A stretch of 51,019 bases of DNA from Elusimicrobiaceae bacterium (GTDB taxonomy: Bacteria > Elusimicrobiota > Elusimicrobia > Elusimicrobiales > Elusimicrobiaceae): the NCBI GenBank assembly GCA_017961585.1, contig JAGCWX010000029.1, positions 1 through 51,019 on the forward strand. Reading direction: 5' to 3'. The translations under genes and the position numbers were made by a program. A model generated the notes under the pieces. That model saw nothing but the letters and a program-made list of their open reading frames with translations. It made no database searches and was not told the origin of the DNA. Shown piece by piece: positions 33,396-51,019 of the stretch. Position 1 is the first letter of the stretch; each line of letters opens with the position of its first letter.

Positions 33396-34403
33396 ATGAA
33401 TAAATTACAAAAGGCAAGTATCGTTGCTCTCATCAGCACTTTGATTTTGGCCGGTTTATCACCGGCGTGGGGCCAAAGATGGCGGCCCAAAAAATTCAAA
33501 AAAGCCAGAATTGAAAATAAGCTTAAACGCAAAATAACGCTTAGAGATTTACGTTCCCGCGGGAAACATTTCAATCCAAACTTTAACAAGTTAGGGCCGA
33601 ACCATCCCATTACGTATGCGTTGCAAACCGGGCTGAGCGTTGCACAAGTAAAAAAGAACGCCCGCTTTGCGGCAGCAACGTCCCTGCAAGATGCACAAGA
33701 AGCACTTACCGAACCTTATGCCGACGTTGCCGTTACCGCCGCGAAGCAGGCCTGGAATGACGCAAAATTAGCCGGCCTGCGGGGGGAAGAATTAACCCCC
33801 TACCGAGCCGTGCTGCAACAAGCCAATGACCGTCTTTGGGGAAAGCGTTCCCTTTCTCAACAAGCCAAGTTAGATGCCGCAAAGTTTTTCTTTGATGATG
33901 CAAAAAAAGATTTTTTCGCCGGGAATACGGTGGATGCTTTGTATCAGGCCGGGTTAGGGGTTAAGTTTGCAGAAGAAGCCGGCCTCACTGGCGAAGCATT
34001 GGCCCCTTACCAAAAGATGTTGGAGGAAGCCAAACAAACCTTAACCGATGAAACACAAGCCAGCGAAATGGCATTTGACTTTGATCCGTTGCATTCGGGA
34101 GTTCCGTTTACCCGCTTGCAAGAACTTCTTTACCGGGCTAAAATCTATGAGTTGGAAGGCACAGAAATTGATGCCTTGGAAAATCTGGTTAAAAAAATTG
34201 AACCGGCGCAAAAGTTCTTGATGGAAACAGCCAAAGAAAAATTGGAACATGTCAAAAAATTAGCGGAAGCCGCCTATTATGAAGGGGCATTAGTGGAGGC
34301 CGAATCCGCCCTGGAAGATTTGCGAAATGCCGACTTCCCGGAAGAAGGTTTGAAAAAGCACGAACAACTCATCAGAATATTAAAAGCAATCCTGAATATG
34401 TAA
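33396..34403 (+). CDS. Exported helical-repeat protein with AGLTGEALAPY module
   Basis: 335 aa. The signal peptide MNKLQKASIVALISTLILAG ends LSPAWG|Q, followed by a very basic segment (about residues 28-55). Two copies of the helical module are visible: one with AGLRGEELTPYRAVLQQA (about 127-144) and one with AGLTGEALAPYQKMLEEAK (about 200-218). Each is preceded by an amphipathic helix pair with TPR-like spacing of Ala. The rest is Glu/Lys-rich helix. It is the smallest member of the exported family that fills the right third of the window. TAGGAGAAAG is the ribosome site. Function unknown; a periplasmic or surface scaffold is plausible. Confidence 0.87.
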   Translation: MNKLQKASIVALISTLILAGLSPAWGQRWRPKKFKKARIENKLKRKITLRDLRSRGKHFNPNFNKLGPNHPITYALQTGLSVAQVKKNARFAAATSLQDAQEALTEPYADVAVTAAKQAWNDAKLAGLRGEELTPYRAVLQQANDRLWGKRSLSQQAKLDAAKFFFDDAKKDFFAGNTVDALYQAGLGVKFAEEAGLTGEALAPYQKMLEEAKQTLTDETQASEMAFDFDPLHSGVPFTRLQELLYRAKIYELEGTEIDALENLVKKIEPAQKFLMETAKEKLEHVKKLAEAAYYEGALVEAESALEDLRNADFPEEGLKKHEQLIRILKAILNM

Positions 34404-34447
34404 AAACAATCCAACCGATACACAGCAATCATTAAAATATTACCAAC

Positions 34448-34475
34448 AAATCCCCGGGCACTCGCTCGGGGATTT
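34448..34475 (+). terminator. Probable terminator hairpin
   Basis: AAATCCCCG / CGGGGATTT stem with a 10-nt loop, 45 nt after the stop of the 335-aa protein. The T run is short. Confidence 0.65.
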
Positions 34476-34510
34476 GTGTTCCTCGTGCGTTGGGCCCCTC
34501 GCTAAAACCT

Positions 34511-34577
34511 AGGTCTAAAGACCTAAACCAAGATAGGCACAAAGACCCTGGAAAGAATTTCCTTTATTGTTTATTAT
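34511..34577 (+). promoter_or_regulatory. Promoter with shared dyad operator (copy 5 of 7)
   Basis: AGGTCTAAAGACCTA (34511-34525) matches the left arm of copy 7 at 13 of 15 positions. An 8-nt centre is followed by TAGGCACAAAGACCCTGG (34534-34551). The -35 TGGAAA (34549-34554), 17-bp spacer and -10 TATTAT (34572-34577) follow. The leader is about 13 nt with AGAGGAGA. The right inner half-site is degenerate. Confidence 0.75.
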
Positions 34578-34596
34578 TAAGGTAGAGGAGAATCGT

Positions 34597-36171
34597 ATGA
34601 ATAAACTGCAAAAAGGTTGTGTCGCACTCAGTAGTTTTATCGTGCTGGTTGGGTTTTCGCCGGCTTTCGGACAAACCCCCCGGGTACCTAGAAACGTCAT
34701 CCGAACTACCACCAGTGCCAAAATCAACAAATTTGTTGAAAAGAAAGTTCGTCACGAGAATACCCGCCGAGGGATTGCCGAACATAAGGTCAACCGCCAA
34801 GCCATCCGTCAGGCAAATGCAAATCGTGGTGCGCGCGTTGGAGTTTGTGCTACCCGTGTATCTCACGCCGAAATAGCGCAGAAACATTTAGATTTTGCGC
34901 GGGAACGTTACCACCGTACAAATCCGTTGTTTGAAGTGAACCGTTACAATAAGGAACAAGCTTTGTATCACGCGCAAGAAGCTTTGAACGAAGCCCTCTC
35001 AGCCGAGTTTTCCGAGAAACAGTTAACCGTTTATAAGGAAATGTTGGACAAAATTACCAAAGACATTACTGCTCAAGCCACTAGAGAATTAGAACGGGCT
35101 CAAATAACCAAAGATCCTGTAGAGGCGTGGGACCATGCTTCTTCGGCCCTGGAATTGGCAGAAACAGCTAACATGTCTCCCATACACTTAATTCCTTATG
35201 AGAACGTGCTGAAACAAACCCAAAAAGCCGTGGCAGAAAATTTCTTAAAAGAGGCCCAAAAATGGATAGAAGAAAAGCACTTCTTGTCCCTCTCTTATGC
35301 CGAATTTGCCGAAAGCTTAGCCAAAGAAGTCGGTTGTACCGCTGAGGAATTGGCTGCGTACGAAGAAATCTTCAAAAAAGCCCAGGAAGAAACGGATATC
35401 ATTGAAATTGAAGACGCCCTGGCCGATCGTCATTCCGCAGAAGTAAACCTGGCTCAACGCACTGAAAAAGAAGTCAACAAAGCCGAAAAAGAAATCCTCA
35501 AAGAAGAAGCCAAGCAACGTGAAGCCGAAGAAGAAGCGAAATACCGCGCACAGTATTACAAAGTAACCGACCTGCGCGACCAGTGGAAAAATGCTCCCAC
35601 CAAAGATCGCCCGGCAATCGCACGAGAATGGCAAAAACAAGCTAAAATCCTTGAAAACCAGTACGGCAACGGTGATGCACTAGAGCAAGCAGAAGAAGCA
35701 GTGGCTACTTCCGTCACTGAAATTAAAGCCCAACAAAGAGCGCAGAAATTTGCCGACATGTCCAACCAAATGATAGAAGAGTTAAACCAAATGCAAGCGC
35801 GTTACGATGCTATGCCAGCTATGAGTGAAAAAGATATCCAATTTTCCCAATACATACAAAAGGCAAAACAATACTCAACGCGCATACACCAACGCATGAG
35901 CGCCAAGCACCCCACCGTAAATGAGTTTACTTGGGTGGAAGAGTATGCCTATCAACTCAAATACAATTTGGAACAGGCCAAAATAATCTATCAGGAAAAA
36001 TTATCCTTCACCGAACAAATTGCCGAACATGAACTTTCGGAAGGCAAGGGAGCCGAAGAAGCTGCTGCCGGTGCCGACAAAGCAATGGAAGGAAAACAGT
36101 TCACAAGCGTAGAGCAATACGTAAATGAATTATTGGAATACTACGACGAGCTGGACCTCACCCAACCTTAA
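34597..36171 (+). CDS. Exported coiled-coil/helical-repeat protein
   Basis: 524 aa from the ATG at 34597; a longer TTG reading crosses the -10 box. The signal peptide MNKLQKGCVALSSFIVLVG ends FSPAFG|Q and is followed by the basic tract TPRVPRNVIRTTTSAKINKF. Three diverged copies of the family module can be traced by PYENVLKQTQ, AAYEEIFKKAQ and TVYKEMLDKI with their preceding Ala-rich helices. The centre (about residues 280-330) is a Lys/Glu coiled coil (KEVNKAEKEILKEEAKQREA). No membrane segment apart from the leader. It has its own dyad promoter and terminator, so it is a single-gene unit within the exported-protein array. Function unknown. Confidence 0.87.
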   Translation: MNKLQKGCVALSSFIVLVGFSPAFGQTPRVPRNVIRTTTSAKINKFVEKKVRHENTRRGIAEHKVNRQAIRQANANRGARVGVCATRVSHAEIAQKHLDFARERYHRTNPLFEVNRYNKEQALYHAQEALNEALSAEFSEKQLTVYKEMLDKITKDITAQATRELERAQITKDPVEAWDHASSALELAETANMSPIHLIPYENVLKQTQKAVAENFLKEAQKWIEEKHFLSLSYAEFAESLAKEVGCTAEELAAYEEIFKKAQEETDIIEIEDALADRHSAEVNLAQRTEKEVNKAEKEILKEEAKQREAEEEAKYRAQYYKVTDLRDQWKNAPTKDRPAIAREWQKQAKILENQYGNGDALEQAEEAVATSVTEIKAQQRAQKFADMSNQMIEELNQMQARYDAMPAMSEKDIQFSQYIQKAKQYSTRIHQRMSAKHPTVNEFTWVEEYAYQLKYNLEQAKIIYQEKLSFTEQIAEHELSEGKGAEEAAAGADKAMEGKQFTSVEQYVNELLEYYDELDLTQP

Positions 36172-36320: not shown

Positions 36321-36785
36321 TTAGAAATCCACATCCGGCGTTTCATCAATGGCGGCCAGCGTGTCGGCAAACAGCTTTCGTACAACATCCCATTGGCTAA
36401 GCGGCAGCAAAATGCCCTTGGTGGTAAACCCTTTGTCTTCTTCCCATTGGCGCAGTTCCAAGCCGCGCACGGTGCCCGCTTCCACGATAGAAACTACTAC
36501 ACAAATGCCCGGGCGTTTGGCAAATTTGCCCACCTCGCCCAGCTTTAATTGCGTAGCATCTTGCGGAAGTGCCAGCACCACCGGCACCAACACGCGCACC
36601 ATTTCGGGGCTCAACGTGACCCCTTGCTGCGTGGGCATGGGCAAAATTTCATTCAACAAAAATTTGCGCACCGACACGTAGCGATACCCGCGGTACGCGT
36701 CAATGGAAAAGCGCACTTCCTCCTGCGCATTAAGTTGCAAAGAACCAATGTCTCTAAGTAGTGTAAAACTGCTCTCTAACCCCAT
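36321..36785 (-). CDS. Tandem PC4-like (p15 coactivator fold) nucleic-acid-binding protein
   Basis: 154 aa. The C-terminal half (about residues 100-145) has GLELRQWEEDKGFTTKGILL followed by PLSQWDVVRKLF. This is the PC4 pattern of a beta sheet (here LRQWEEDKGF, KGILLPLSQW) followed by one helix. The N-terminal half shows the same pattern in weaker form: VRFSIDAYRGYRYVSVRKFL, then GVTLSPEMVRVLVPVV. One chain could therefore form the ssDNA/RNA-binding unit that normally needs a dimer. Cytoplasmic; a role in transcription or ssDNA binding is inferred. It is transcribed leftward and divergently from the kinase gene, with AGGGG upstream of the ATG. Confidence 0.78.
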   Translation of the reverse strand: MGLESSFTLLRDIGSLQLNAQEEVRFSIDAYRGYRYVSVRKFLLNEILPMPTQQGVTLSPEMVRVLVPVVLALPQDATQLKLGEVGKFAKRPGICVVVSIVEAGTVRGLELRQWEEDKGFTTKGILLPLSQWDVVRKLFADTLAAIDETPDVDF

Positions 36786-36866
36786 GTTACAAACCCCTAA
36801 AAATATGATATGATACCTGTATATATATTGTAGTGGTTAAAACTCAAAAAATCAAGGGTGTTTATT

Positions 36867-39191
36867 ATGGCACAGGAACAATCGCAACAGCCGTCTTTAG
36901 TAGGGCAAGAGATTTCCGGTTGTGAAATTTTACAAAAAATCGCCGTCGGTGGAATGGGGGCCGTATACAAAGCCCGCCACAAAGCGTTAGACCGCATTGT
37001 GTGTGTAAAAATTTTATCCCCGGCACTCACCAACGATAAAAAAGCCGTGGAACTTTTCCTGACCGAAGCCCGCGCCATTGCCGAACTGGAACACCCTAAT
37101 ATTGTGCAGGTTTATAACGTCGGGCGTGAAAAGGGCTACTACTTTATTGTAATGGGATTTATTGAAGGGCAGACGCTCTCGCAGTTGGTCAAGCGCAACA
37201 AAACCTTGCCGCTGGAAACCATTTTAAAACTGTTTGAAGAAGTGCTTTTGGGGCTGGATGCCGCCCACGCCAAAGGGATTATCCACCGCGATATTAAACC
37301 CTCTAACATTTTAATTAATACCGACGGGCAAGCTAAAATTGTGGACTTCGGTATCGCCAAAAAAGTAGATAAAGAAAAGGGGACCACTAAAACCACCGAA
37401 TTAGCCGGCACCGCATATTTTATTGCGCCGGAACAAGCCCTCGGGAGGGAGTTAGATACCCGTGCCGATTTGTATTCCGTCGGTGCTAGTTTATACTACG
37501 TACTAACGGGTCAATTCCCTTACAACGGCAAAAATACTATTGACATTATCCAAAAACATATCAATGACCCCGTTCCCAACCCGGCGGCCTTACGCCCGGG
37601 AATGCCCGCGTGGCTAAGTGCGGCCGTCCAAAAATTGATGGCAAAAAAACCTGAAGACCGCTTCCAAACCGCCAAGGAAACCTATGTCTATTTCCAAAAA
37701 GCGCGTGCTGAAGAACAATTGCGCATTCAAAAAGGGTCTTCCATTAACTTGGGGGATAACAGCTCCCTTAAATTAGTGCAAGAAGAAAAATTTTCAACTA
37801 CCGAATTGCAACGCAAACGCCAGGCCGAAAAGAGCTTAAAAAAATCCACACAGTCCAATAAACCCTCACTTTTACCGTCGGTAGATAAAGCTGCCGTGTT
37901 GCCGGTAACAGCTAACGCTGCAAAACCGGTGGACCCGTCTTCTATTGCATTGCCCACGGCCTCGGAAGCAGCCACCAAGGGGATTTATTCCAACCCGGCT
38001 TCCGGTGCGTTGGAACATGCGTTGCGACAAAAAGCCCGCTGGGTTGGCGGCTTGCTCAAAGATTTACTGATCAAACTACCGATATTTATCCTATTTACGA
38101 TAGGCGTAGGATACGTATTTTATCACTTGGGAAACATCTGTTCGGCGGGGATTATTGAACACGACGGGCTGCTTGCCAATTTGATTAACCCGTTCTTTGC
38201 TAAAACCTTCCAACCGCAACAATGGCTTTACATGTTGCTGGGTGTAGTAACGCTGGGGCTCATTTTTGCCAGCGCAGCAGTAAAAGAATATTCCCGTGCA
38301 ACAGTTACACTGTTCCTGCTAGCGTTTGTATCGTATATGGCAGGGTTGTTCTCGCCGCAGGTACCTTTCTTGCAGACGGGGCACATTTGGGAATTTTTAT
38401 TCACACCGCAATATTATTTGTGTTACTTGGTGGTGGCGTTTGCTGGGGCAGTAGCCGTGTGCTCCACGTACAACCGCACCATTTTACAAGGGGCACTGGG
38501 CGGCGCGTTAGTCATTTTGGTAGTGGCACTGGCGTATTTATCTTCGCACTTATCCATTCCACCGGCCGAACATGTGGTTCAATTTCAAATCTTGTTCTTT
38601 GCCGGGCTGTTTGCCACGGTGGTAGCGGTGTATTACTTGCTCAACCGCGAGGAACGCACCAGCGTGATTATGCCCCTGTTTATCTTGCTCTTGGCGATGG
38701 GATGTTTGTGGGTGTATAACGTGTCAGGATTGGTGCAAACGGCCAAGCACACTTCCGAAGCGTTGGTACAAAACATTGACGTGAAAAACTTATTCCGTGA
38801 AGCACCAGCCCCTTTACCCGAAGAGGACTATGGCCTGCCCAACCGGCCCAAAAGCCCCTTCGTGGCTAAGGATAACACCAACGAAGTTTCTGTGATGGAA
38901 GATCAGCAAGCGCACGACTTTTTAGCCAGCCAGTTTGCAGTGCTGGCCCCAAATGCTTTTGACGGAGAAAATACTGCCCTCTTCTCGCGCCTGTTGCGGC
39001 GCTACTATAAGGGGGGGCAAAGCAACTTAAATACTACGCTATGGGAATATGCACTTACGTTGCCACTGCATCGGTTCAACCAAAACGCACAAACCAACAG
39101 TGCCTACACGTTTTTAATGCTGCTACTTATGATGTTAAGTGTAGGATTTTGTGTATGTGGAATTTTCTTTAAGTCGGAAGAGGAAGAATAA
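36867..39191 (+). CDS. Membrane Ser/Thr protein kinase (Hanks type) with multipass C-terminus
   Basis: 774 aa from the ATG at 36867; a GTG three codons earlier is possible. The kinase domain (about 15-280) is complete: glycine loop GGMGAVYK (28-35), catalytic Lys48, Glu67 in the C helix, HRDIKPSN (140-147), DFG (160-162), APE (187-189). A low-complexity Lys/Ser linker follows (about 295-375). Then come about seven hydrophobic helices (about 400-625) and a last one near the C-terminus (about 750-770). PASTA repeats, common in bacterial kinases of this kind, are absent. It is followed 3 nt later by a PP2C phosphatase, making a kinase/phosphatase switch amid the exported-protein array. Confidence 0.93.
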   Translation: MAQEQSQQPSLVGQEISGCEILQKIAVGGMGAVYKARHKALDRIVCVKILSPALTNDKKAVELFLTEARAIAELEHPNIVQVYNVGREKGYYFIVMGFIEGQTLSQLVKRNKTLPLETILKLFEEVLLGLDAAHAKGIIHRDIKPSNILINTDGQAKIVDFGIAKKVDKEKGTTKTTELAGTAYFIAPEQALGRELDTRADLYSVGASLYYVLTGQFPYNGKNTIDIIQKHINDPVPNPAALRPGMPAWLSAAVQKLMAKKPEDRFQTAKETYVYFQKARAEEQLRIQKGSSINLGDNSSLKLVQEEKFSTTELQRKRQAEKSLKKSTQSNKPSLLPSVDKAAVLPVTANAAKPVDPSSIALPTASEAATKGIYSNPASGALEHALRQKARWVGGLLKDLLIKLPIFILFTIGVGYVFYHLGNICSAGIIEHDGLLANLINPFFAKTFQPQQWLYMLLGVVTLGLIFASAAVKEYSRATVTLFLLAFVSYMAGLFSPQVPFLQTGHIWEFLFTPQYYLCYLVVAFAGAVAVCSTYNRTILQGALGGALVILVVALAYLSSHLSIPPAEHVVQFQILFFAGLFATVVAVYYLLNREERTSVIMPLFILLLAMGCLWVYNVSGLVQTAKHTSEALVQNIDVKNLFREAPAPLPEEDYGLPNRPKSPFVAKDNTNEVSVMEDQQAHDFLASQFAVLAPNAFDGENTALFSRLLRRYYKGGQSNLNTTLWEYALTLPLHRFNQNAQTNSAYTFLMLLLMMLSVGFCVCGIFFKSEEEE

Positions 39192-39194: not shown

Positions 39195-40022
39195 ATGCAG
39201 ACTTTTGATATTGAATTTGCCGCCGTTACAGATATTGGTAAAATCCGCGAGAAAAATGAAGACAATGTGCTTATTTCTTCGGATTTAAGTTTGGGCGTAG
39301 TGGCCGACGGTATGGGCGGGCATAGCGCGGGCGAAATTGCCAGCAATATTGCCGTGTCCGTCTTAGCCGAAACGGTGCGGAAAATTAACACCGGGGCGTT
39401 GAAAATCCCCGATAATTTCTTGCCGAAACTTTCTCTGTCTGAGCGTAAAATTTTGTTAGCGGCTAACTTGGCTAATGCCGCTATCTATTCCACCGCCCAA
39501 TCGGCCGATACCTACCGTATGATGGGCACCACGCTTACGGGCGTGCTGTTGGAAGACAACCTGGCCACCGCCGTACACGTGGGCGATTCGCGCCTGTATC
39601 TGCTGCGTAACGACAAGATTATCCAAATCACTACCGACCATTCCCTGGCTATGGAACACATCCGCCGCGGGTTGCTTACCAAGGCCGAGGCCGACCATTC
39701 CAAAATTCAAAACATCCTTACCCGCGCCATGGGCATTAAAAAGAATATTGAGTTTGATTTACTCAAATTCCCCGTGCACGAGGGCGACATTTTACTGCTC
39801 TGTTCCGACGGGCTCTACAAGGGCTTGTCCGAAGAACAGATTGGCGCACTTTTGCGGGCCGGGCGGCATACGCCGCTGGTCAAGCTGTGCAAGCAGCTGG
39901 TGCACGATTCTAATATGCACGATGGGCAGGATAACATTTCCTGCGTACTGCTTAAGATCTTGCCACCGCAAAAACTCAGCTGGACTCAACGCCTCAAGCG
40001 CTTCTTTAAACATTCCTGTTAA
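39195..40022 (+). CDS. PP2C-family Ser/Thr protein phosphatase
   Basis: 275 aa, normal for the bacterial Stp/PrpC type. Metal-binding motifs are present in order: TDIGKIREKNEDN (about 13-25), VADGMGGHSAGE (about 37-48), GTTLTGVLL, VHVGDSRLYLLR (about 128-139), CSDGLYKGL (about 203-211) and DGQDNISCVLL near the C-terminus with the last metal-binding Asp-Asn. It removes phosphate from Ser/Thr in a Mn/Mg-dependent reaction and should reverse the action of the kinase encoded immediately upstream. GGAAGAATAACTC links the two reading frames. A strong terminator closes the operon. Confidence 0.95.
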   Translation: MQTFDIEFAAVTDIGKIREKNEDNVLISSDLSLGVVADGMGGHSAGEIASNIAVSVLAETVRKINTGALKIPDNFLPKLSLSERKILLAANLANAAIYSTAQSADTYRMMGTTLTGVLLEDNLATAVHVGDSRLYLLRNDKIIQITTDHSLAMEHIRRGLLTKAEADHSKIQNILTRAMGIKKNIEFDLLKFPVHEGDILLLCSDGLYKGLSEEQIGALLRAGRHTPLVKLCKQLVHDSNMHDGQDNISCVLLKILPPQKLSWTQRLKRFFKHSC

Positions 40023-40216: not shown

Positions 40217-43200
40217 ATGGAAAATATTGCTTCTAAACTGATTTCATTGGTGGTCAGCACTTCGTTGCTGGCTGGGATGATTCCTGCCTACGGGCAGTCC
40301 GTTTCGCTTCAAAAATCCGTGGAAAGAGCCGTCGTACGCGCGCAGGGAGACTCGTTTTCACATGTAGTGAATACGTTGCGTGAGGCGGTAGGGGAAACCC
40401 CTACGCAAGAGGAAATCAAATCCGCTCAGATAACTACTTTCGTATCGCCAACAACGAAATTGGAGGCCTACCTAGCTATTGCGTTACGTGTCGTAGTGGA
40501 CCGGGGAACGTTTGAAAATCCGCCGCAGACCGCGCAATTTGTGCAGGACGTTACCTATCTGGTTACGTACTTTGCCCCGCAAGTACAAGAACACTACACG
40601 GTGCTGTTTAATTACCTGCTTAGCGTGCCCGAGCAAGCCAAAAAGCAGTGTCCGCTCAACAAATCCGACACGCCGCTTTGTGAGGCCTACGCCAAAGCGT
40701 TGCCGGCGTTACAGGCATTTGCTCACCCGGGGAAAGACTTAAGTCATGCCGAAGATGCAATCCGTGCGTTTTTCTTACATCGTTATAAACGCCACCTCAA
40801 ACACACTCCGGCAGCCCCGTTGGGACGCACCGACCCAAACCAAAATTATTTTGAATTTCGCCCGCAACAAACCGCACCCGCGCTAGACGGTCAAACCGTC
40901 ACACAACTGCTCACTCCCGCCGGTGGCATTGTGCCGCGCAAACCCAAAGTCCGCAAGAACCGTTCTACCACACCGCGCACCACACGACGCACACGCGTGC
41001 CGCGCAACACCACCCGCGTTCCCAGAGTGGCAAACCGCACCGCGCCACGCCACACAACTTCGGCTGTTTCCCCGGCAACAAACGCTCCGTTGCAGACCGT
41101 CGTCCCGGACAAAATGGTCAAGTGGGAAAAACTATCGCCCGATCAACATCTCAACGCGCAGGCCTTTCTGCAAGCGCGCCAAAGCAGCTTGCAAACCGCG
41201 CAAGTCTATCAGCAATTGCAAACCGCCCTGCAAGCCCAATTAGACGCACTCAAACGGTTAGATTTGGCCCAAACTGCGCCGGAAATTTCCGCCGCGCAAT
41301 TGGTCTACGATCAATCCACCGCTCACGCACAAACGTTGTGGAAAAGCGCACAGCAATCTACCCGTTTGACCGGCGATAAATGGCTGCAAGTGCGTTATGA
41401 TTTTTCACCCAAAAGCCCGCTGTTTAAATTGCAAAATTTTGCCCAGGAAGGCCGGCTGGAAGAAGTCCGCTCCCAGGGGAGAGCAAGTCTGTTGCAGGAC
41501 CAAATTTCCGATTTGTTAGAAGAGCGCGAGATGCGCGCCTTGCGCCTGCGTCTGCGGCTTAAACAGGTGCAATCGCTCAAAATAGACCCCGCGCAACCGA
41601 TCCAAATTGTGGAAGAATCCGCCAACGGCTTTACCTTATATAGTAGCATCATTCCGCCTTTTTGGGAGTGGTTCAAAAAGAAAAAAGCGCCCGAAGTTGA
41701 ACCCGTGCCTGAAGTAACCCCCACGCCCGAAGAAGAATCCGCTTCCGCCCAGCCGCAAGCACAATCCAACGTAGTGCCGCTTCATTCTATGGAGCAAACG
41801 CATCAGGCACAAATTGTTCCCTTTGAACCCGCACCGGGAAAGGCCAAGAGAACCCCCTTTCAGGAATTGGCACAACATATTGACCAGTCCTTTTCGCCAT
41901 TGCAAAAGGATCTCTTTATTGGTAGCTCGTTGATTGTAAGCAGTTTTTTGGGGCTTCCCCTGGGGCTGATTTGGGTACCCACACCCGATTTTGTCAAAGC
42001 CATTAACGCCGCCCAAGCCAAGGTGGACATTTACAAACCCATCACCCTGGGACGTAAAATTAACCGGCTGCTGCGCTTGAAATGGGCCGGCCTCAAACGT
42101 CAATTTAATGAATTTACGCAAGAGGTAATGGAAGACGAGGAGGATACTGAATTGGACGAACCGGATCCGTCGGACAATCCGCAAGGCCCCAACACGCCCA
42201 CCCCTAAAAAACCTACGTTGTGGCAGCAACACAAAGACAAATTGCCCGCCATCGCTGCGGTGGGATTATCCAGCTGGCTAATTAACAAAGGAATCGGCGG
42301 AGCCGAAGGCGTAGCCGTGGCCGGCATTTTCGGAGGGGGACTTTCAAACATTTGGAAAAACCTCAAGCTCAAATTTTCGCAAAAAGAGAAGTTGAAAAAA
42401 GAATATAACGAAAAACGCGTAGCCCTGCAGCAACTTTATATTAAATGGTTGGATGCATCCAAAGAGATATCGCGCACGCCGCTGGCAGTGGAATACTTGG
42501 AAGAAGTTCAAAAACTAACAACCTTCGCCAATGAAAATAATCTTGATGTCACAGTTCCCTCAATGCGAACCGCCAAAGATGCGGTTGAACTTTCGCACAA
42601 AGAAGATACCTTCCGCTCTATCGTGGAACAACAAACACCCGCCCAACGCACGGCCGCGCTGGAGGCCTATCAAGCCAAATTAACAAGGGCCAAAAACGCT
42701 CAAAGAACTCATTACAATGGGAGGATGTCCAACACGGCTACGGCGAAACAATTTTTAAAAGAAGCCCAAGAGCTGGCGGAATTGGCCAAAGAAAAGGGCA
42801 TCGCAGAAATGGAATCCGAACAGTTGCTGGAGCAAGCCCAACAAGCCGTGGAACAAGCCCAACGCCTAGAACTTGACGCCATAAAACTTGACCTGGATAA
42901 ACGCTATAACAAAATGTATGATGAAGCCGTAAGAAGTATGGTAGCGTGGAAATCTGCTCGGGATGGTTCTCGCCTCAAAAAAGCCCGCAAATGCCTGCAA
43001 AACTTGCAAGGGTTAGCCGAACTCAATCGTCAACGTGGCGTAGAAGAAGAATGGCTTAACGAAGCGTTAAAACAAGCCCAAAATGCGGTGGAAATTTCGC
43101 TGCGCGAAGATGAACTGCGGCGGAGGAACAAGGCATATGACAAACAAAAAGCGCAAGAAGAAAAAGCCAAAAAAGCAGCCGCCAAACAACGCCGCAAACG

Positions 43201-44104
43201 GCTAAACAAACCCGCCACCGCGGAATATCACGCCGATCCGATCGCGCCGCAGCAGCCCGTCGTCAAAACGAAAAAAAATCTTGCGGGGGAATTTTCGCCG
43301 CGAGAAAATTTTAAAAACTGGCTTTATCAAGTTCAAAACAATCGCATGCGCAATGTTGTAGATGAAAAAACAACACACGCACTTTATGCTATCAGCCACG
43401 CGGTAGGGGAAGATTGGACCAAGCACACCTTGCGCCCCGAAGTTACCGCCCTGGTGGATCGTTTGGAAACATTAAATCAACTCATGGGCGATCACGGTTC
43501 CCTACGCTACCGTTTGCAGTATCAAGCCCCGTTTGAACCGGGTCAAAGCGAGCTACCGAAACCGGAAAATTTTGTCCTCACTGTTGATTTAGCAGGCCTG
43601 CCTGCGGATAGTCCCTCGGTAATCCGCACTGATAAACTGATTCAGAAACGTTTAAAGCAACGTAATTCGTTGAATATTATTTTACTGCAGGAAGGTGAAC
43701 AAATTATTGGGATACGCTTCTCACAAGATGCCAATTTAGAAAAAGCCAACCAAAATTTACGCACCGTTATTGCTTCTCTTACGCCCGAAGGTTACACCCC
43801 GCGCATGGGTCTACATGAAGTGGGTTTAAGTTCCGCCAGTGATTTGGCGCACTTTTCCAATGGTTTTGTTCACATACACTTTGACCGCCCGGCAAACGTG
43901 CTGGACGAAATCCCGGTGGAAACCAACATTTCTCTCAATATCAACGTGATGTCCTTTACCGGGGCCCGTTATCCTGGAGAGATGGTCATTCCTTATTCGG
44001 CAAAAAAAATAGCCCAAGTCTATTGTAAATTATTTGACGGGTTGCTCACCCCACAAGCGCAGGCCGAACTCACACGCATGGCCAATTACGAGGTACCAAA
44101 CTAA
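40217..44104 (+). CDS. Large exported coiled-coil protein with a central hydrophobic region
   Basis: 1295 aa. The leader is followed by SLLAGMIPAYG|Q, then a globular-looking region to about 190. A strongly basic Arg/Thr/Pro tract (about 235-275) repeats the RVPR motif seen at the mature ends of its relatives. Glu/Gln-rich helices follow. A proline-rich spacer is followed by two hydrophobic segments (about 570-590 and 675-705) that could form a membrane hairpin. Long Lys/Glu/Ala coiled coils (about 715-985) lead to a C-terminal domain (about 1000-1290) with more mixed sequence. No known domain recognised. It shares a transcript with the 398-aa gene that starts one base after its stop. Confidence 0.87.
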   Translation: MENIASKLISLVVSTSLLAGMIPAYGQSVSLQKSVERAVVRAQGDSFSHVVNTLREAVGETPTQEEIKSAQITTFVSPTTKLEAYLAIALRVVVDRGTFENPPQTAQFVQDVTYLVTYFAPQVQEHYTVLFNYLLSVPEQAKKQCPLNKSDTPLCEAYAKALPALQAFAHPGKDLSHAEDAIRAFFLHRYKRHLKHTPAAPLGRTDPNQNYFEFRPQQTAPALDGQTVTQLLTPAGGIVPRKPKVRKNRSTTPRTTRRTRVPRNTTRVPRVANRTAPRHTTSAVSPATNAPLQTVVPDKMVKWEKLSPDQHLNAQAFLQARQSSLQTAQVYQQLQTALQAQLDALKRLDLAQTAPEISAAQLVYDQSTAHAQTLWKSAQQSTRLTGDKWLQVRYDFSPKSPLFKLQNFAQEGRLEEVRSQGRASLLQDQISDLLEEREMRALRLRLRLKQVQSLKIDPAQPIQIVEESANGFTLYSSIIPPFWEWFKKKKAPEVEPVPEVTPTPEEESASAQPQAQSNVVPLHSMEQTHQAQIVPFEPAPGKAKRTPFQELAQHIDQSFSPLQKDLFIGSSLIVSSFLGLPLGLIWVPTPDFVKAINAAQAKVDIYKPITLGRKINRLLRLKWAGLKRQFNEFTQEVMEDEEDTELDEPDPSDNPQGPNTPTPKKPTLWQQHKDKLPAIAAVGLSSWLINKGIGGAEGVAVAGIFGGGLSNIWKNLKLKFSQKEKLKKEYNEKRVALQQLYIKWLDASKEISRTPLAVEYLEEVQKLTTFANENNLDVTVPSMRTAKDAVELSHKEDTFRSIVEQQTPAQRTAALEAYQAKLTRAKNAQRTHYNGRMSNTATAKQFLKEAQELAELAKEKGIAEMESEQLLEQAQQAVEQAQRLELDAIKLDLDKRYNKMYDEAVRSMVAWKSARDGSRLKKARKCLQNLQGLAELNRQRGVEEEWLNEALKQAQNAVEISLREDELRRRNKAYDKQKAQEEKAKKAAAKQRRKRLNKPATAEYHADPIAPQQPVVKTKKNLAGEFSPRENFKNWLYQVQNNRMRNVVDEKTTHALYAISHAVGEDWTKHTLRPEVTALVDRLETLNQLMGDHGSLRYRLQYQAPFEPGQSELPKPENFVLTVDLAGLPADSPSVIRTDKLIQKRLKQRNSLNIILLQEGEQIIGIRFSQDANLEKANQNLRTVIASLTPEGYTPRMGLHEVGLSSASDLAHFSNGFVHIHFDRPANVLDEIPVETNISLNINVMSFTGARYPGEMVIPYSAKKIAQVYCKLFDGLLTPQAQAELTRMANYEVPN

Positions 44105-44105: not shown

Positions 44106-45302
44106 ATGAACCTAATCAAAAAAATCAGTGTAGTTGCCGTAAGTACGCTCTTTATTTTTGCCGGATTATCGCCGGCTTTTGGGCAAAAATTAAAACGAGT
44201 CCCCAAGAAAAAAGCCGTCGTCAAAACGGAAGGTGCGCGCCTACACACTAGTGCACGCAGCCCGCGTGCCAAACCGCAATTTCCTGTTAGCACTACCTCC
44301 CGCATCCATACGGCTACCCAAATAAACCGCGTGGCACAAATGGCACCCACAAAGTTTACGCCGATTCAACTTAACATTCCACAAACTTCGGTGTGGGGGG
44401 AAAAAGCTTTGCAAAAAGCGCAAGAAGCTGCTGTGCGCCAAGTGCTTGACACCTATGCCCCTACTTGGAAGCAAGATATTTTATTTGCCAACAATGTAGC
44501 TCCTTATTCTGAATTGCAAGAAATTTATCCACAACGGGTGGTGCAAGCCCTCCTGCGAACTGAAAAACATTTTGAGCAAACTGGCTTGCCACTTACTCTA
44601 GGCGAATATGAAAAAACATTTCAAATGCTTTTGCTGGAAACTTCTTCTAAACGTTTTGTAATCAATGTGATGGGAACCATCCCCATGCAATCTTTTTTTA
44701 AGCTACGTGCCCCGGAAGAACAACAACCTGAGCCCATGATTGAAAAGTCCGTTCCTGTAAGAGTTAAAGGGCCCCTGAACGCTACTATCTTTGAAATTTT
44801 ACAATCCCGCGCGGATGACTTACAAGCATTATTAGCGGGTATCAGCTATAATACTAAGGGCGAAACTTCTGCACCGGTATCTTACCCTTTTGGAAAAATT
44901 TATAAGCAAACTGTTTCCGTGCTTAACGCACTGGAACGCATTGAAGTGTACGAAAATCAAGCGGCCTTACATCAACGCACTAAAAACACAACCCCTTACA
45001 TTCGGCTTATGGAAAAAACCTTATTGACTTTATCCAACCGATTAGACAATTTGATTACTGCGCACGATACATACAGTTTTAAACTCAGCACACACCCGGA
45101 TGTGCAAAATAACCACATAAATTGGGGAACCGCCAACCGCGCGTTGGAAAGGCAATCCAAGCAACTAGCCGAAGTGACTGAGCGGATATCTAAGATATAT
45201 CGTGGCAAACGTTTGTACGATGCGCTTGGCCGCGCCCGGCAAGTTGTGCGCGATGCAAAAACCGCCCAACAAAGAGGTATCAACAAACACGGTGCCCAAT
45301 AG
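44106..45302 (+). CDS. Exported protein of the GLSPAFGQ-leader family
   Basis: 398 aa from the ATG at 44106; the longer open frame overlaps the preceding gene. The signal peptide MNLIKKISVVAVSTLFIFAG ends LSPAFG|Q and is followed by the basic tract LKRVPKKKAVVK. The body has two mixed regions (LQEIYPQRVVQALLRTEKHF, PTLGEYEKT-like) and a C-terminal helical part rich in Arg/Gln. The LTGEALAPY module is not seen, so only the leader and the basic tract tie it to the family. Its stop codon abuts the dyad operator of the next gene. Function unknown. Confidence 0.85.
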   Translation: MNLIKKISVVAVSTLFIFAGLSPAFGQKLKRVPKKKAVVKTEGARLHTSARSPRAKPQFPVSTTSRIHTATQINRVAQMAPTKFTPIQLNIPQTSVWGEKALQKAQEAAVRQVLDTYAPTWKQDILFANNVAPYSELQEIYPQRVVQALLRTEKHFEQTGLPLTLGEYEKTFQMLLLETSSKRFVINVMGTIPMQSFFKLRAPEEQQPEPMIEKSVPVRVKGPLNATIFEILQSRADDLQALLAGISYNTKGETSAPVSYPFGKIYKQTVSVLNALERIEVYENQAALHQRTKNTTPYIRLMEKTLLTLSNRLDNLITAHDTYSFKLSTHPDVQNNHINWGTANRALERQSKQLAEVTERISKIYRGKRLYDALGRARQVVRDAKTAQQRGINKHGAQ

Positions 45303-45367
45303 GTCCAAAGGCCTACTGTTCAATAGGCCTTAAGACCCTGGAAGATTTTCCTTTGGTTACCTAATAT
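45301..45367 (+). promoter_or_regulatory. Promoter with shared dyad operator (copy 7 of 7, most symmetrical)
   Basis: A two-tier symmetrical dyad: outer GGTC (45302-45305), two bases, inner AAGGCCTA (45308-45315), 8-nt centre, TAGGCCTT (45324-45331), two bases, GACC (45334-45337). CCTGG follows and runs into the -35 TGGAAG (45339-45344). A 17-bp spacer leads to the -10 TAATAT (45362-45367). The leader is about 10 nt and is mostly GGAGGAGA. The element starts within the stop codon of the preceding gene. Confidence 0.82.
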
Positions 45368-45383
45368 ATAGGGAGGAGAAATT

Positions 45384-48300
45384 ATGCCCAAACCAAAACA
45401 AATCTTGTGTATCGCATTAAGCACGCTTTTTATTTTTGTCGGATTATCGCCAGCTTATGCTATTACTCCAAAACCTAGAAAAATCAACACAGGCAAAGCC
45501 AAAGTTCAGAAGTCAGGGGTAGAACGTAAGACCAAGTTGGGTGACGTGCGCCGCAACCGTTCCGTTGCCGGACGTAACATTACCCGTTCCGCACAAGCTG
45601 GGCGCAATGCGTCTAGGCAGGCGGCTGTTTCCACCGCAACAAGATCCACCACGCACGTGGCGCCGCAAGTCGTTCATTTTCAAACGATAGGCAACCAAAC
45701 AGGGCAAGTGGCAGGGCACGCGCCAACACAAGCTCAGTTGCAAGCACAAGTGCAAGCACGCATTGAAGCCGATATGTCCAACCAAATCCGCAACTCTGCT
45801 AAAAATTCCAGAGGGAAAAATGGGGTGGTTCAACCCACGCCGGCCTCAAAAAAGGTAACACAAACTCCGGCGAAAAACACCGCGCAATCCGTAACGCCTA
45901 CGCCGGCGCCAAAGGAGCCAACGCCCACACCGCAACCCGCCGCGCAACCGTCCACACCGCAACAACCGGTGGTGGCACAATCTTCCGCCCGTCCGGGCAA
46001 TTTGTACGGTGGCTTTGGATTTGTTTTTGATTGGTTAAAAAAGCGCGATGCTAAAAAAGAAGCCAAAGCTTCTTTAGAAAGTGCACAATCTTATGGCGAA
46101 GCGAACCCGGAAATGTGGGAAAAAGAAGCCCAAAAAGCGTTTCAAAAAGCGCAAGAGGGGGGCTTAAAAGGGGAAGATTTAAAACCCTATCAAGAAGAAT
46201 TTGAAAAAGCCAGCCAAGCCCGTGCCAAAGCGGAAGCCGAAGCGAAAGCCAAAGCGGAAGTGAAATTGGCTGATGCACAAGACGATTTGATAAATGACTT
46301 CCCTTACAGCGCAGTTGATCATGCTGAAAGCGCCCTCATCCATGCCAAAGAAGCCGGCCTCACCGGCGAAGCATTAGCTCCGTACGAGCAGACCTTGGCC
46401 AAAGCAAAAGAAGCCCATACCCAAGCACAAGCTCGCGCAAAAGCTGAGGAAGCCCTTGCAAAAGCGGAAGCGAAAGCCAAAGCCGAAGCGGAAGCTAAAG
46501 CCGAAGCTAAAGCAAAAGCCGAAGCGGAAGCTAAAGCAAAAGCAAAAGCCGAAGCGAATGCAGAACAGTATTTGGCTAATGCACAAGACTATTTGGAAAG
46601 GGATCTCACGTACTTCGCAATTGACTATGCCGAAAAAGCCCTCCGCTATGCCCAAAAAGCCGGCCTCACCGGCGAAGCATTAGCTCCGTACAAGCAGACC
46701 TTGGCCCAAGCAAAAGCGAAGGCAAAAGCCGAACCGTATTTGGCTAATGCACAAGACTATTTGAAACGGGATCTCCCGAACTTCGCAATTAACTATGCTG
46801 AAAACGCCCTTAGCTATGCCAAAGAAGCCGGCCTCACCGGCGAAGATTTAGCTCCGTACGAGCAGACCTTGGCCAAAGCAAAAGAAGCTCATGCCCAAGC
46901 ACAAGCTCGCGCAAAAGCTGAAGCCGAAGCGAAAGCCAAAGCCGAAGCGGAAGCCCGCGCAAAAGCAAAAGCGAATGCAAAACAGTATTTGATTTATGCA
47001 CAAGACTATTTGAAACGGGATCTCACGAACTACGCAATTGACTATGCTGAAAAAGCCCTCCGCTATGCCCAAAAAGCCGGCCTCACCGGCGAAGATTTAG
47101 CTCCGTACGAGCAGACTTTGGCCGAAGCAAAAGCGAAAAAAGCGAAAGCCGAAGCGGAAGCTAAAGCGAAAGCCGAAGCCATAGCAGAAGCTCAAGCGAA
47201 AGCCGAAGCGGAAGCTAAAGCTAAAGCCAAAGCCAAAGCCGACGCCAAAGAGGAAGCTAAAGCCAAAGCAAAACAGTATTTGGCTGATGCACAAGACTAT
47301 TTGGAATGGGATCGCCCGAACTCCGCAATTAACTATGCTGAAAACGCCCTTAGCTATGCCCAAAAAGCCGGCCTCACCGGTGAAGCATTAGCTCCGTATG
47401 AGCAGGCCTTGGCCGAAGCAAAAGCGAAGTTTAAAGCCAAAGCAAAACAGTATTTGGCTGCTGCACAAGACTATTTGAGAAGGAATTTCCTGAACAAAGC
47501 AATTGATGTTTCTAAAGACGCCCTCAACTTAGCCAAAGGAGCCGGCCTCACCGGCGAAGCATTAGCTCCGTATGAGCAGGCCTTGGCGGAAGCGGAAGCT
47601 CGCGCAAAAGCAAAAGCGAAGTTGGTTGAAGCACAAAACGATTTGGAACGTGGTTTCATAACCTTCGCAATTTACAATGCTGAAAGCGCCCTCAACTTAG
47701 CCAAAGGAGCCGGCCTTACCGGCGAAGCATTAGCTCCGTATGAACAGGCCTTGGCGGAAGCAAAAAAAGTAAAAGCCCGTGCCAAAGCGGAAGCCAAAGC
47801 AAAAGCAAAAGCCGAGGCGGAAGCTAAAGCAAAAGCCGAGGCGGAAGCTAAAGCAAAAGCCGAGGCCAAAGTCAATGCACAACAGAATTTGGCTGATGCA
47901 CAAAATTATTTGGAAAATAATTCCCTCAATAGCGCACTTAGCTCTTCTCAAAACGCCCTTAGCTATGCCCAAAAAGCCGGCCTCACCGGTGAAGCATTAG
48001 CTCCGTACGAGCAGACCTTGGCCAAAGCAAAAGAAGCCCATGCCCAAGCACAAGCCCGTGCAAAAGCCCTCCAGTTGGCTCAAGCCAAGGGCGCCCCGTT
48101 AAACTTAACAAACAAAGTGGAAAGAGCCGTGTTTAATACGTTGCAAGAAAGCCGCGAAACGCAGATAACTGCCATGCAAAAAATGAATAACTGGTTGCAA
48201 GCCATCCTGAGAAACAACAAAAACACTTCCCGTAGCTTCCCATTCTTGCTGGATTTTGCCCGCAGAGAGGGGGTAGTCTCATGGGAAGAATATGAACTTC

Positions 48301-49400
48301 TCACCGGTTGGGAAACACCCCACTCAACAATCTCCTTTTATGTCTGGAAAATCTCCTTTTATTCCTGGAACACTATTTATGATTCCATCAATAAATTGCT
48401 GACCTGGGTGCAAGAAGAAAAACAATTTTGGCACGATGCACGCATTAACTATCAAAACCCCAATCAAACGGCTTTGGTAGAAACCACCCGCACCGCTCTG
48501 AGTGAACTTTCCACTCGCTTGCAAGAGGAATTAAGACACCTAGAGGGCCTTGTAATCCGCTATCACAATCAACCTACGGAATCTTTGCTTGAAAAAATTG
48601 AATCCTTGCAAGAGCAAATCAAACAGAAAGCCGCCCAATTAGAACAGCTGACGCAAAAAGTAAATACCATCTACGGGAACGAACTTTCGGTGGAAATTTC
48701 CCAAACGCAAGAAGTGTTGCAAGAAGCCACGCGCGTTTCCCAAATACAAAACCTGCAAACCCAGCTGGAAATGGGGGAACAGTTTGCCATTCACCTTACC
48801 GAGAATGCAGGGGAAAAACCGCAAGCACGCCGTTTGAACCCCAAAAAGTTGACTGCGCAAGAGTTGAAACTCTATAACAAGGTGCAAACAGCATCCGCGC
48901 GGTTGGCCGATTGGAAAAAAGCGCACCGGGGCAAAACCCCTTCGTGGGGTTCAACCGACCCGGTAGAAAAAACCCTGTATACTCTAGTTACGAGCGTTTT
49001 GTCCGACGCCGAAAAAGCCGGTTGGGGGGATACCACCTTGGTGCAAAAATTAAGAAAACAATCCGGGTTGCGCAAGTGGTCTTCTTCGCAGCAATTGCTT
49101 GAAGAATATAAACGCTTCCGCGTTCAAAATCCGCACCGCAACCCCAATTCCAACGACCCGGCCGAAGCCAAATTGCATATGGCTATGAAAAATCAATTAA
49201 ACATCCACCGGGCCGAGCTGGAAACGAACCCCCTGTTCCGGGAAATGAACCGTTTGTGGAACACGGTACCGTTGGAAGGGGAAGAATTAATTCATCTGCA
49301 AGCCGAAGTATACGCACGTGAAGCCGTCAACGACCCAGTCGTTTTAGAAGCAGAGGAAATGTGGCAGAAATTTTTGAAACGTCAACAACGCGGGCAATAA
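45384..49400 (+). CDS. Large exported helical-repeat protein with TolA-like Ala/Lys/Glu linkers
   Basis: 1338 aa. The signal peptide ends LSPAYA and is followed by a basic tract and an N-terminal domain shared with the next gene (PTQAQLQAQVQARIEADMSN near residue 115). A Pro/Thr spacer (about 150-205) leads to residues 230-900. There eight clear copies of a helical module containing AGLTGEALAPYEQTLAKAK, plus one diverged copy, are separated by Ala/Lys/Glu linkers of varying length. Each module pairs YLxxAQDYL with an Ala-rich AINYAENALSYA helix, a TPR-like spacing. The last 430 residues are coiled coil and mixed helices with an aromatic patch (ISFYVWKISFYSW). No membrane anchor is visible. 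A cell-surface or periplasmic spacer/scaffold is the most natural guess. Confidence 0.88.
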   Translation: MPKPKQILCIALSTLFIFVGLSPAYAITPKPRKINTGKAKVQKSGVERKTKLGDVRRNRSVAGRNITRSAQAGRNASRQAAVSTATRSTTHVAPQVVHFQTIGNQTGQVAGHAPTQAQLQAQVQARIEADMSNQIRNSAKNSRGKNGVVQPTPASKKVTQTPAKNTAQSVTPTPAPKEPTPTPQPAAQPSTPQQPVVAQSSARPGNLYGGFGFVFDWLKKRDAKKEAKASLESAQSYGEANPEMWEKEAQKAFQKAQEGGLKGEDLKPYQEEFEKASQARAKAEAEAKAKAEVKLADAQDDLINDFPYSAVDHAESALIHAKEAGLTGEALAPYEQTLAKAKEAHTQAQARAKAEEALAKAEAKAKAEAEAKAEAKAKAEAEAKAKAKAEANAEQYLANAQDYLERDLTYFAIDYAEKALRYAQKAGLTGEALAPYKQTLAQAKAKAKAEPYLANAQDYLKRDLPNFAINYAENALSYAKEAGLTGEDLAPYEQTLAKAKEAHAQAQARAKAEAEAKAKAEAEARAKAKANAKQYLIYAQDYLKRDLTNYAIDYAEKALRYAQKAGLTGEDLAPYEQTLAEAKAKKAKAEAEAKAKAEAIAEAQAKAEAEAKAKAKAKADAKEEAKAKAKQYLADAQDYLEWDRPNSAINYAENALSYAQKAGLTGEALAPYEQALAEAKAKFKAKAKQYLAAAQDYLRRNFLNKAIDVSKDALNLAKGAGLTGEALAPYEQALAEAEARAKAKAKLVEAQNDLERGFITFAIYNAESALNLAKGAGLTGEALAPYEQALAEAKKVKARAKAEAKAKAKAEAEAKAKAEAEAKAKAEAKVNAQQNLADAQNYLENNSLNSALSSSQNALSYAQKAGLTGEALAPYEQTLAKAKEAHAQAQARAKALQLAQAKGAPLNLTNKVERAVFNTLQESRETQITAMQKMNNWLQAILRNNKNTSRSFPFLLDFARREGVVSWEEYELLTGWETPHSTISFYVWKISFYSWNTIYDSINKLLTWVQEEKQFWHDARINYQNPNQTALVETTRTALSELSTRLQEELRHLEGLVIRYHNQPTESLLEKIESLQEQIKQKAAQLEQLTQKVNTIYGNELSVEISQTQEVLQEATRVSQIQNLQTQLEMGEQFAIHLTENAGEKPQARRLNPKKLTAQELKLYNKVQTASARLADWKKAHRGKTPSWGSTDPVEKTLYTLVTSVLSDAEKAGWGDTTLVQKLRKQSGLRKWSSSQQLLEEYKRFRVQNPHRNPNSNDPAEAKLHMAMKNQLNIHRAELETNPLFREMNRLWNTVPLEGEELIHLQAEVYAREAVNDPVVLEAEEMWQKFLKRQQRGQ
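46263..48075 (+). repeat. In-frame tandem repeat array within the 1338-aa gene
   Basis: The DNA word GCCGGCCTCACCGG (or one-base variants) recurs at 46353, 46659, 46827, 47076, 47367, 47541, 47709 and 47976. The intervals are 306, 168, 249, 291, 174, 168 and 267 bp, all multiples of three. The minimum of 168 bp (56 codons) is the bare module. Longer intervals carry extra runs of GCxAAA/GAA codons encoding Ala-Lys-Ala-Glu linkers. Confidence 0.9.
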
Positions 49401-49432
49401 GTAAAGCCCATTAAAAGGAGAAACAACGAACT

Positions 49433-51019
49433 ATGAACAAACTACAAAAAGCATGTACAATTGCACTAAGCGGTATGATTGTGCTTACCGGTTTGTCCCC
49501 AGCGTGGGGGCAAAGACGGCCCAAACGCATTAAAAAGGGTCACAAGATTGAAGGAACTGTAGAACGCAGAACCACATTAGGTGAATTACGTCGCACACGC
49601 CGTTTGGAAAGACGTAGCCCGATAAGAAAGAACAAATCTGTATCCACCGTGCCGCAAAACACGCACGTTACGCCTAGGGAAGTTACCCGCGTTACAACCG
49701 TGGGGAACCAAGTGCATACTCCTACCGTAACGAATAATGCACACACGGGAACTTCTCACACACCTACGCAAGCCGAGTTGCAAGCGCAAGTGCAACAACG
49801 CATTGAGACTGAAGTGGGGAATCAAATTCGTAATTCTTCTATGCCGCGTACGTCAGTAACTCCCGCGGCAAGCACACAGGGGAAAACCCCGATAGTAGTA
49901 GATGAACAGTTACCTTTATCTACCGGCTCTCCCGCTAATTTAGAGGCCACCATGGCTAAGTGGGAACAAAAAATTAAAGCCAGTAATCAAGCTCAATCTT
50001 CTTTGGAAGCTGCCCAAGCCGCTTTGGGAAAAAACGACTTAATGCAAGCGTATAAATCCGCGCAAGATGCAGTTGCAAACGCCCAAGAAGCGGGGGAAAT
50101 AGCTGGGGAGTTATCTACCTATCAAGCGGTATTGGATCAAGTCAAAAAGCGCTTAACTCAACAAATATCCGATGCTCGCGAACTAGTCAATTCTACTCCG
50201 GCCGCCGTAGTGGACTATGCCGAAAAAGCTCTTAAGCAAGCCAATGAGTTAGGGCTCACCGGCACGGAAATTACCGGTTTGCAAAATCTGCTCAAACAAG
50301 CCCGTGAAATGCAAGAATTGCTAATTGAATCATCCAAATTAACTTTACAAGAGTTAGATTGGGATATTGTTGACGGAAAATTTGATCAAGCCATAGAAGC
50401 CGCCAACGATGCAATTATAGATCTGCGCAGAGCCGGCGTAAATGGCAAAGAACTTGCCCCATTTGCAAACAAAGTCAGACAAATCAGGGGAGACGCCACC
50501 GCAAAAGCCATGGCCGATACCAATTTGCATATGGCTCAAACGGAACTGATGGCCACCGGAGAGGATTTTGACCCCGTTGCCGCAATGGAATATGCGCAAG
50601 ATGCTTACGAAGCCGCACAGGAAGCTGGCTTGATAGGTAAAGCCCTGGCCCCGTACGAGGAAGTCCTCAAACAAGCCAAAAGCCGCACCAACGCTAAAGT
50701 ATTGGCCGAAGGGTACTTACAATATGTCACCGAAGAATTATCCCTTAACCCGGACATTTTTGATTATGAATACGCACTAGAACAGGCCATCAAAGCCCTT
50801 GACTATGCTGAAGAAGCCGGGCTCACCGGTGAAGCACTTGCCCCATACCATGACGCTCTCGTGCAAGTGGAAGATGTGGCCAAAGGGAAAGCCGAAAAGT
50901 ATTTAAAAATGTCTCAATGGGCAGCGCAATCCGGCAACGTAAGCGGTGCTATTAGCTCAGCTGAAAAAGCTATGAAGTACGCCCAAGACGCCGGATTATT
51001 TGCCGAAGAGTTAGCCCCG
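49433..51019 (+). CDS. Exported helical-repeat protein, paralogue of the 1338-aa protein, runs off the window
   Basis: The frame is open for 529 codons from the ATG at 49433 to the right edge, so it is partial. AAAAGGAG lies 12 nt upstream. The signal peptide MNKLQKACTIALSGMIVLTG ends LSPAWG|Q and is followed by a strongly basic tract. Residues about 105-135 match the N-terminal domain of the previous gene (PTQAELQAQVQQRIETEVGN), and the spacer layout is similar. About five complete modules follow, ending in forms such as AGLIGKALAPYEEVLKQAK and AGLTGEALAPYHDALVQVE, with short linkers instead of long Ala/Lys/Glu runs. Only 32 bases separate it from the upstream stop and no dyad is present, so it is probably co-transcribed with that gene. 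Confidence 0.87.
   Translation, partial: MNKLQKACTIALSGMIVLTGLSPAWGQRRPKRIKKGHKIEGTVERRTTLGELRRTRRLERRSPIRKNKSVSTVPQNTHVTPREVTRVTTVGNQVHTPTVTNNAHTGTSHTPTQAELQAQVQQRIETEVGNQIRNSSMPRTSVTPAASTQGKTPIVVDEQLPLSTGSPANLEATMAKWEQKIKASNQAQSSLEAAQAALGKNDLMQAYKSAQDAVANAQEAGEIAGELSTYQAVLDQVKKRLTQQISDARELVNSTPAAVVDYAEKALKQANELGLTGTEITGLQNLLKQAREMQELLIESSKLTLQELDWDIVDGKFDQAIEAANDAIIDLRRAGVNGKELAPFANKVRQIRGDATAKAMADTNLHMAQTELMATGEDFDPVAAMEYAQDAYEAAQEAGLIGKALAPYEEVLKQAKSRTNAKVLAEGYLQYVTEELSLNPDIFDYEYALEQAIKALDYAEEAGLTGEALAPYHDALVQVEDVAKGKAEKYLKMSQWAAQSGNVSGAISSAEKAMKYAQDAGLFAEELAP

What the first reader, a model, noticed from the sequence alone, without database searches (positions are those of the whole stretch)
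33396..51019. An expanded array of exported helical-repeat proteins with a common leader
Genes at 33396, 34597, 40217, 44106, 45384 and 49433 share leaders ending (G)LSPAxGQ or close variants, sizes from 335 to over 1300 aa, and in at least four cases a module marked by AGLTGEALAPY. The modules have TPR-like helix spacing but the signature is not one I can assign to a named family. Tandem placement, separate promoters and graded divergence point to lineage-specific expansion, as seen for surface or secreted proteins that meet a host or partner. This may be an undescribed surface-scaffold system.
Basis: partly seen in the sequence, partly recalled or inferred. Interest (0 to 1): 0.75.

Follow-up and report, generated by a model that had tools for sequence, protein, structure and literature searches.

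The report
Species-specific array of exported TPR-like rods
A gut or rumen Elusimicrobiaceae bacterium carries, wedged between housekeeping genes that sit side by side in its relatives, a cluster of exported proteins built from chains of a 56-residue TPR-like helical module; the cluster is real and nearly unique to this species, and its proposed role as a binding scaffold outside the cytoplasm is untested.

Summary
The array is real, with corrections. The window is one contig of a 1.49 Mb gut/rumen Elusimicrobiaceae genome. Five of the six genes (not 40217) share a signal peptide and a basic first ~25 mature residues. Four of the six carry the 56-residue module (19 copies here, 33 hits genome-wide). 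A three-module model (pLDDT 96) gives a TPR-type hairpin plus an extra helix that runs on into the next module. The AKAEA-rich linkers fall in that helix and so probably act as rigid spacers. Module sequence is below Pfam's TPR cut-offs.

The module is absent from 80 relatives (48 congeners) and, beyond short TPR-like matches, from 294 genomes across the phylum. In 35 of 36 relatives PP2C and groES are adjacent; here about 11 kb of array lies between them. So this is a species-level expansion in a conserved slot.

Gene 40217 differs: it carries an unnamed C-terminal domain found only in Elusimicrobiaceae, with a near-invariant R-x-x-x-H-E…H-x-H-x-E motif. In other species that domain also sits beside PP2C/groES or pnp.

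Most likely Sec-exported binding or scaffold proteins of periplasm or cell surface. Surface location, a host role and separate promoters are not shown.

The parts
33396..34403 (+). exported module protein, 335 aa: leader plus 2 modules
   Evidence: leader profile; module hits 33672-33830 and 33879-34040
34597..36171 (+). exported module protein, 524 aa: leader plus 2 diverged modules
   Evidence: leader profile; module hits 35074-35229 and 35233-35391
36321..36785 (-). PC4-domain protein, conserved flanking gene, not part of the array
   Evidence: Pfam PF02229 E 7e-10; synteny
36858..39191 (+). PknB-like Ser/Thr kinase, conserved flanking gene, not part of the array
   Evidence: Pfam PF00069 E 6e-52; 40 relatives
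39195..40022 (+). PP2C phosphatase, conserved flanking gene; groES follows it directly in relatives
40217..44104 (+). exported 1295-aa protein without the module; possible transmembrane segment at residues 567-585; belongs to a separate protein type
43304..44071 (+). unnamed Elusimicrobiaceae C-terminal domain of 40217 with R-x-x-x-H-E and H-x-H motif
   Evidence: profiles A6 and A8
44106..45302 (+). exported 398-aa protein: shared leader, no module; starts 1 bp after 40217
45384..49400 (+). exported 1338-aa module protein: leader, 9 modules, A/K/E linkers, C-terminal domain shared with C13b (45% over ~200 aa)
46059..48041 (+). module and linker region of 45384; linkers at about 46458-46568, 46893-46985, 47121-47276 and 47754-47888
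47268..47783 (+). three contiguous modules used for the structure model
   Evidence: AlphaFold2 pLDDT 96.1, all helical
49433..51019 (+). exported module protein, cut by the contig end (about 542 aa with C32): leader plus 6 modules

Best explanation
A species-level expansion of Sec-exported helical-repeat proteins inserted beside conserved housekeeping genes. Each protein has a type I signal peptide (read from sequence) and, in five of six genes, a shared strongly basic mature N-terminus; four window genes carry two to nine modules (C13b elsewhere in the genome has thirteen). Each module is a TPR-type helix hairpin plus a third helix that is continuous with the first helix of the next module (shown by model). 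A/K/E-rich linkers lengthen that shared helix (inferred), so the long members should be extended, semi-rigid rods with several TPR-like grooves. Most likely (inferred) they work as multivalent protein-binding scaffolds in the periplasm or at the cell surface, growing and diversifying by tandem module duplication. Gene 40217 is a co-located member of a different, family-wide exported protein type defined by its C-terminal domain.
For: Leader family restricted to seven genes of this genome. Module: 33 hits here, none in 80 relatives. Model of three modules with pLDDT 96 and a continuous helix across module borders. Nearest solved structures are mostly TPR domains, e.g. CHIP at 57 residues, rmsd 1.1, 32% identity. 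Conserved small residues at TPR positions 8, 20 and 27. Insertion between PP2C and groES, adjacent in 35 of 36 relatives. DNA-level tandem repeats of 168-249 bp. Turn motif conserved (pN/pS 0.17) against helices A-B (1.52).
Against: No ligand, no localisation data, no expression data. The Pfam TPR cut-off is not reached by any module. High Z-scores are common for helical repeats (note). The pN/pS contrast for helices A-B is not significant (bootstrap 0.95-3.18). The C15-C32 join rests on a 133-bp overlap only.
Confidence: 0.6

Rival explanations
1. Periplasm-spanning structural rods, analogous to TolA domain II: long A/K/E helices and helical hairpins bridge envelope layers or bind the wall through the basic N-terminus, without specific ligands.
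For: A/K/E-rich linkers of 31-52 aa; the only NCBIfam hit of 45384 is TolA, E 0.0011, far below cut-off and in the low-complexity part; mature N-termini carry net +9 to +14.
Against: TolA has an inner-membrane anchor, which the module proteins lack after signal cleavage; 33396 and 34597 have the module but no such linkers; the variation lies in helices A-B, where a ligand groove would be.
Confidence: 0.2
2. Secreted effector or toxin-like system: the C-terminal domain of 40217 is an enzyme and the repeats are delivery or binding arms.
For: The domain keeps R, H, E, H, H, E in 20-21 of 21 distinct copies at about 20-30% identity; it ends exported proteins with variable N-terminal regions.
Against: Polymorphic toxins usually vary at the C-terminus, here the C-terminus is the constant part; no Pfam or PDB relative; no immunity gene was identified; only 40217 of the six window genes carries the domain.
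Confidence: 0.1
3. Relaxed, largely non-functional repeat expansion: module copies spread by unequal crossing over, with little selection.
For: Strong internal DNA repeats; absent from congeners; pN/pS near 1 over whole modules (1.04).
Against: All six long frames are open; clear purine-rich ribosome-binding sites precede 33396, 34597, 45384 and 49433; the turn motif is constrained (0.17); two genomic loci keep related leaders and modules.
Confidence: 0.08

Closest known systems
Tetratricopeptide repeat superfamily (Pfam TPR_1, TPR_2, TPR_8)
   Same: Antiparallel helix hairpin with small residues at positions 8, 20 and 27; model matches TPR domains such as CHIP
   Different: 56 instead of 34 residues; an extra helix continuous with the next module; conserved AGLTGEALAPY turn; below Pfam cut-offs
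TolA domain II
   Same: A/K/E-rich helical stretches in an envelope protein
   Different: Here the stretches separate TPR-like modules; no membrane anchor or TolA C-terminal domain was found
Spectrin-type repeats (including SbsC spectrin-like repeats of S-layer proteins)
   Same: Third helix continuous with the first helix of the next repeat; one module hits SbsC_spectrin-like at E 0.058 only
   Different: About 56 rather than about 106 residues per repeat (the latter from general knowledge); the best structural matches are TPR
Helicobacter cysteine-rich (Sel1-repeat) proteins, from general knowledge
   Same: Paralogous exported alpha-repeat proteins expanded in one lineage
   Different: Different repeat; those are disulphide-stabilised, whereas these have 0-4 cysteines each

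Membership tests
TPR superfamily | Sequence match above a curated TPR cut-off | tested here: not met
   No TPR model above its gathering score for any window protein or any of 23 modules; my own consensus reaches TPR_8 20.7 bits against a cut-off of 25.7
TPR superfamily | Helix-turn-helix hairpin with TPR geometry | tested here: met
   Model with pLDDT 96; matches to TPR domains down to rmsd 1.0-1.5 over about 55-60 residues, with the caveat on helical repeats given there
TPR superfamily | Small residues at positions 8, 20 and 27 | tested here: met
   Nearly invariant A9, A21, A28 of A1, offset by one
TPR superfamily | 34-residue period | tested here: not met
   Period 56 residues (168 bp) or longer with linkers
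TolA | Match to the TolA model above cut-off | tested here: not met
   18.3 bits against a cut-off of 59.45
Spectrin-like repeats | Three-helix bundle of spectrin geometry | tested here: inconclusive
   Continuous helix between modules is present, but no spectrin chain is among the 50 rows shown
Polymorphic toxin | Known toxin domain and a neighbouring immunity gene | tested here: inconclusive
   No Pfam toxin domain in the 40217 C-terminal domain; neighbours were not systematically examined for immunity genes
Phage or plasmid cargo | Homologues in phages or plasmids | tested here: not met
   No PHROGs match for four of the proteins; no match of 33396 in plasmids or of the 40217 C-terminal domain in phages

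The most novel reading that the evidence does not exclude
Elusimicrobiaceae share an undescribed exported-protein system that uses preferred chromosomal slots (beside PP2C/groES and beside pnp). Each species fits its own helical arms, here TPR-like rods, next to or onto a conserved C-terminal domain with an active-site-like R-x-x-x-H-E / H-x-H-x-E signature; the arms select partners outside the cytoplasm and the domain acts on them.
Probability: 0.2. Interest if true: 0.65.

Novelty: new variant of a known kind. Interest (0 to 1): 0.42.

Why it matters
Uncultured gut and rumen Elusimicrobiaceae have small genomes (about 1.1-1.8 Mb in the congeners), yet this species spends about 14 kb here, and more at a second locus, on exported proteins that its congeners lack. 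That makes them candidates for species-specific contact with the surroundings. The continuous-helix module joined by A/K/E spacers is a natural design for long rods with regularly spaced binding sites, and the associated C-terminal domain is an uncharted family with a strict motif.

Tried and rejected
Module as a known Pfam or NCBIfam repeat: rejected at sequence level. Module profile in viral contigs: could not be run, no block was conserved enough. Phage or plasmid origin: no support. Functional link of the array to the kinase/PP2C pair: not supported as specific, since the pair is conserved without the array in the relatives. Separate promoters: not above chance. Structure of the 40217 C-terminal domain: poor model from two sequences (pLDDT 47), so no fold search was made. 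Profile searches of that domain against PDB and Pfam: nothing significant. Diversifying selection on helices A-B: suggestive, not significant. Literature: four searches with Elusimicrobia terms and one on exported repeat proteins listed no paper that by title or abstract describes these proteins; one paper was checked by keyword only.

Full report
WHAT THE WINDOW IS. The window is contig C15 of a 1.49 Mb, 36-contig genome, 98% complete. The kinase at 36858 finds its relatives in gut and rumen MAGs named Elusimicrobium, Elusimicrobiaceae or Elusimicrobiales. The 3' end is not the end of the array: the last 133 bases equal the first 133 of contig C32, where the frame of gene 49433 stops shortly after and groES-groEL follow. 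The join is inferred from this overlap and needs long reads.

THE GENES. Six exported-protein genes lie on the + strand at 33396, 34597, 40217, 44106, 45384 and 49433, with a PC4-domain gene, a PknB-like kinase and a PP2C phosphatase between the second and third. Five of the six share a leader whose similarity extends past the cleavage site into a basic stretch (net +9 to +14 in 40 residues). A profile of this leader gives E <= 3.4e-22 for seven genes in this genome and no better than 3.6e-6 in 60 relatives. The profile was built from those seven genes, so the contrast with the relatives is the informative part. Gene 40217 does not match it. The short ending LSPAxGQ is a habit of the genus, seen in unrelated exported proteins of other species.

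A SECOND LOCUS. The same genome has related genes on contig C13 (C13b, 1459 aa to the contig end, with leader and 13 modules; C13a, 948 aa, with other repeats) and at the start of C5 beside pnp (a leader 72% identical to that of 45384). C13b runs on into the end of C25 (44 identical residues).

THE MODULE. The 56-residue unit has 33 hits in this genome: 9 in 45384, 6 in 49433, 2 each in 33396 and 34597, 13 in C13b, and one on C32 that overlaps the last one of 49433. No relative out of 80, 48 of them in the same genus, has one at E <= 0.001. In 295 genomes drawn across the phylum, this one included, two others give short matches of about 30 residues, as any TPR protein might. AlphaFold2 on three contiguous modules gives pLDDT 96.1 with helices of 12, 17 and 28-30 residues; the long helix crosses the module boundary. 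The four A/K/E-rich linkers of 45384 (31-52 aa) fall at module boundaries and would lengthen this helix; that is inference, since the linkers were not in the model. Structural matches are mostly TPR domains, CHIP among the tightest (57 residues, rmsd 1.1, 32% identity), with the caveat that helical repeats score well in general. By sequence the module stays below Pfam's TPR cut-offs; a consensus that I wrote comes close to TPR_8, which leans towards TPR by construction.

HOW IT ARRIVED. In 36 relatives with both genes on the locus, PP2C to groEL is 419-714 bp in 35 and 1646 bp in one; here it is about 11.7 kb if the C32 join holds. The gap between the heptosyltransferase and PC4 genes varies from 75 to 3054 bp and, where I inspected it and found a gene, holds pilins or other secreted proteins. 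So the array sits in slots that tolerate insertion. Module copies in 45384 differ by 12-29% at synonymous sites. The AGLTGEALAPY segment is constrained (pN/pS 0.17), while helices A and B are not (1.52, bootstrap 0.95-3.18, not significant).

GENE 40217 IS A DIFFERENT KIND. Its last ~256 residues form a domain found in 18 of 101 genomes searched, this one included. Across 341 genomes of the phylum it occurs in 21, all in the genus or its family. It ends exported proteins with differing N-terminal regions, next to PP2C and/or groES (G092, which carries the same protein as L040, and G017) or next to pnp or the radical SAM gene found on the pnp contig here (G004, G011, G015, G022, G032, G041). 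In about 21 distinct copies the residues R, H, E, H, H, E of the motif R-x-x-x-H-E ... H-x-H-x-E are kept in 20 or 21. No Pfam or PDB relative was found. The pattern suggests a functional site, but its nature is open.

INTERPRETATION. Shown: signal-peptide-like leaders by sequence reading, module repetition, predicted module fold, restriction to this species among the genomes searched, conserved flanking order. Inferred: rod shape, spacer role, multivalent binding, location in periplasm or at the surface, and any link between the rods and 40217.

Noticed in passing
6924-12380: An 1818-aa exported protein whose C-terminal third reads like a multi-span MFS transporter; in congeners, giant proteins with similar membrane parts carry the 40217-type C-terminal domain (L114, L117).
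   Followed up: partly
L017:1-2847 (C13a): Tandem repeats of the type WAEEHGRMPRQ...LGKKLNNALQNWDKESPEYKALVDL; the whole protein scores above the Pfam cut-offs for HNH_repeat and 3HBD although no single stretch passes. Similar sequence is found in proteins of several congeners.
   Followed up: partly
33376-33395 and 45364-45383: The bases just before the start codons of 33396 and 45384 are nearly identical (ATATAGGG(T)AGGAGAAA), as if 5' regions were duplicated with the genes.
   Followed up: no
L092:2826-3540 (G017): A C-terminal-domain gene between PP2C and groES is split into two frames with a stop between, so a broken copy sits in the same slot in another species.
   Followed up: no
16284-18913: Two tandem exported proteins with closely similar sequences and C-termini (about 430-450 aa), another local duplication of exported proteins.
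   Followed up: no
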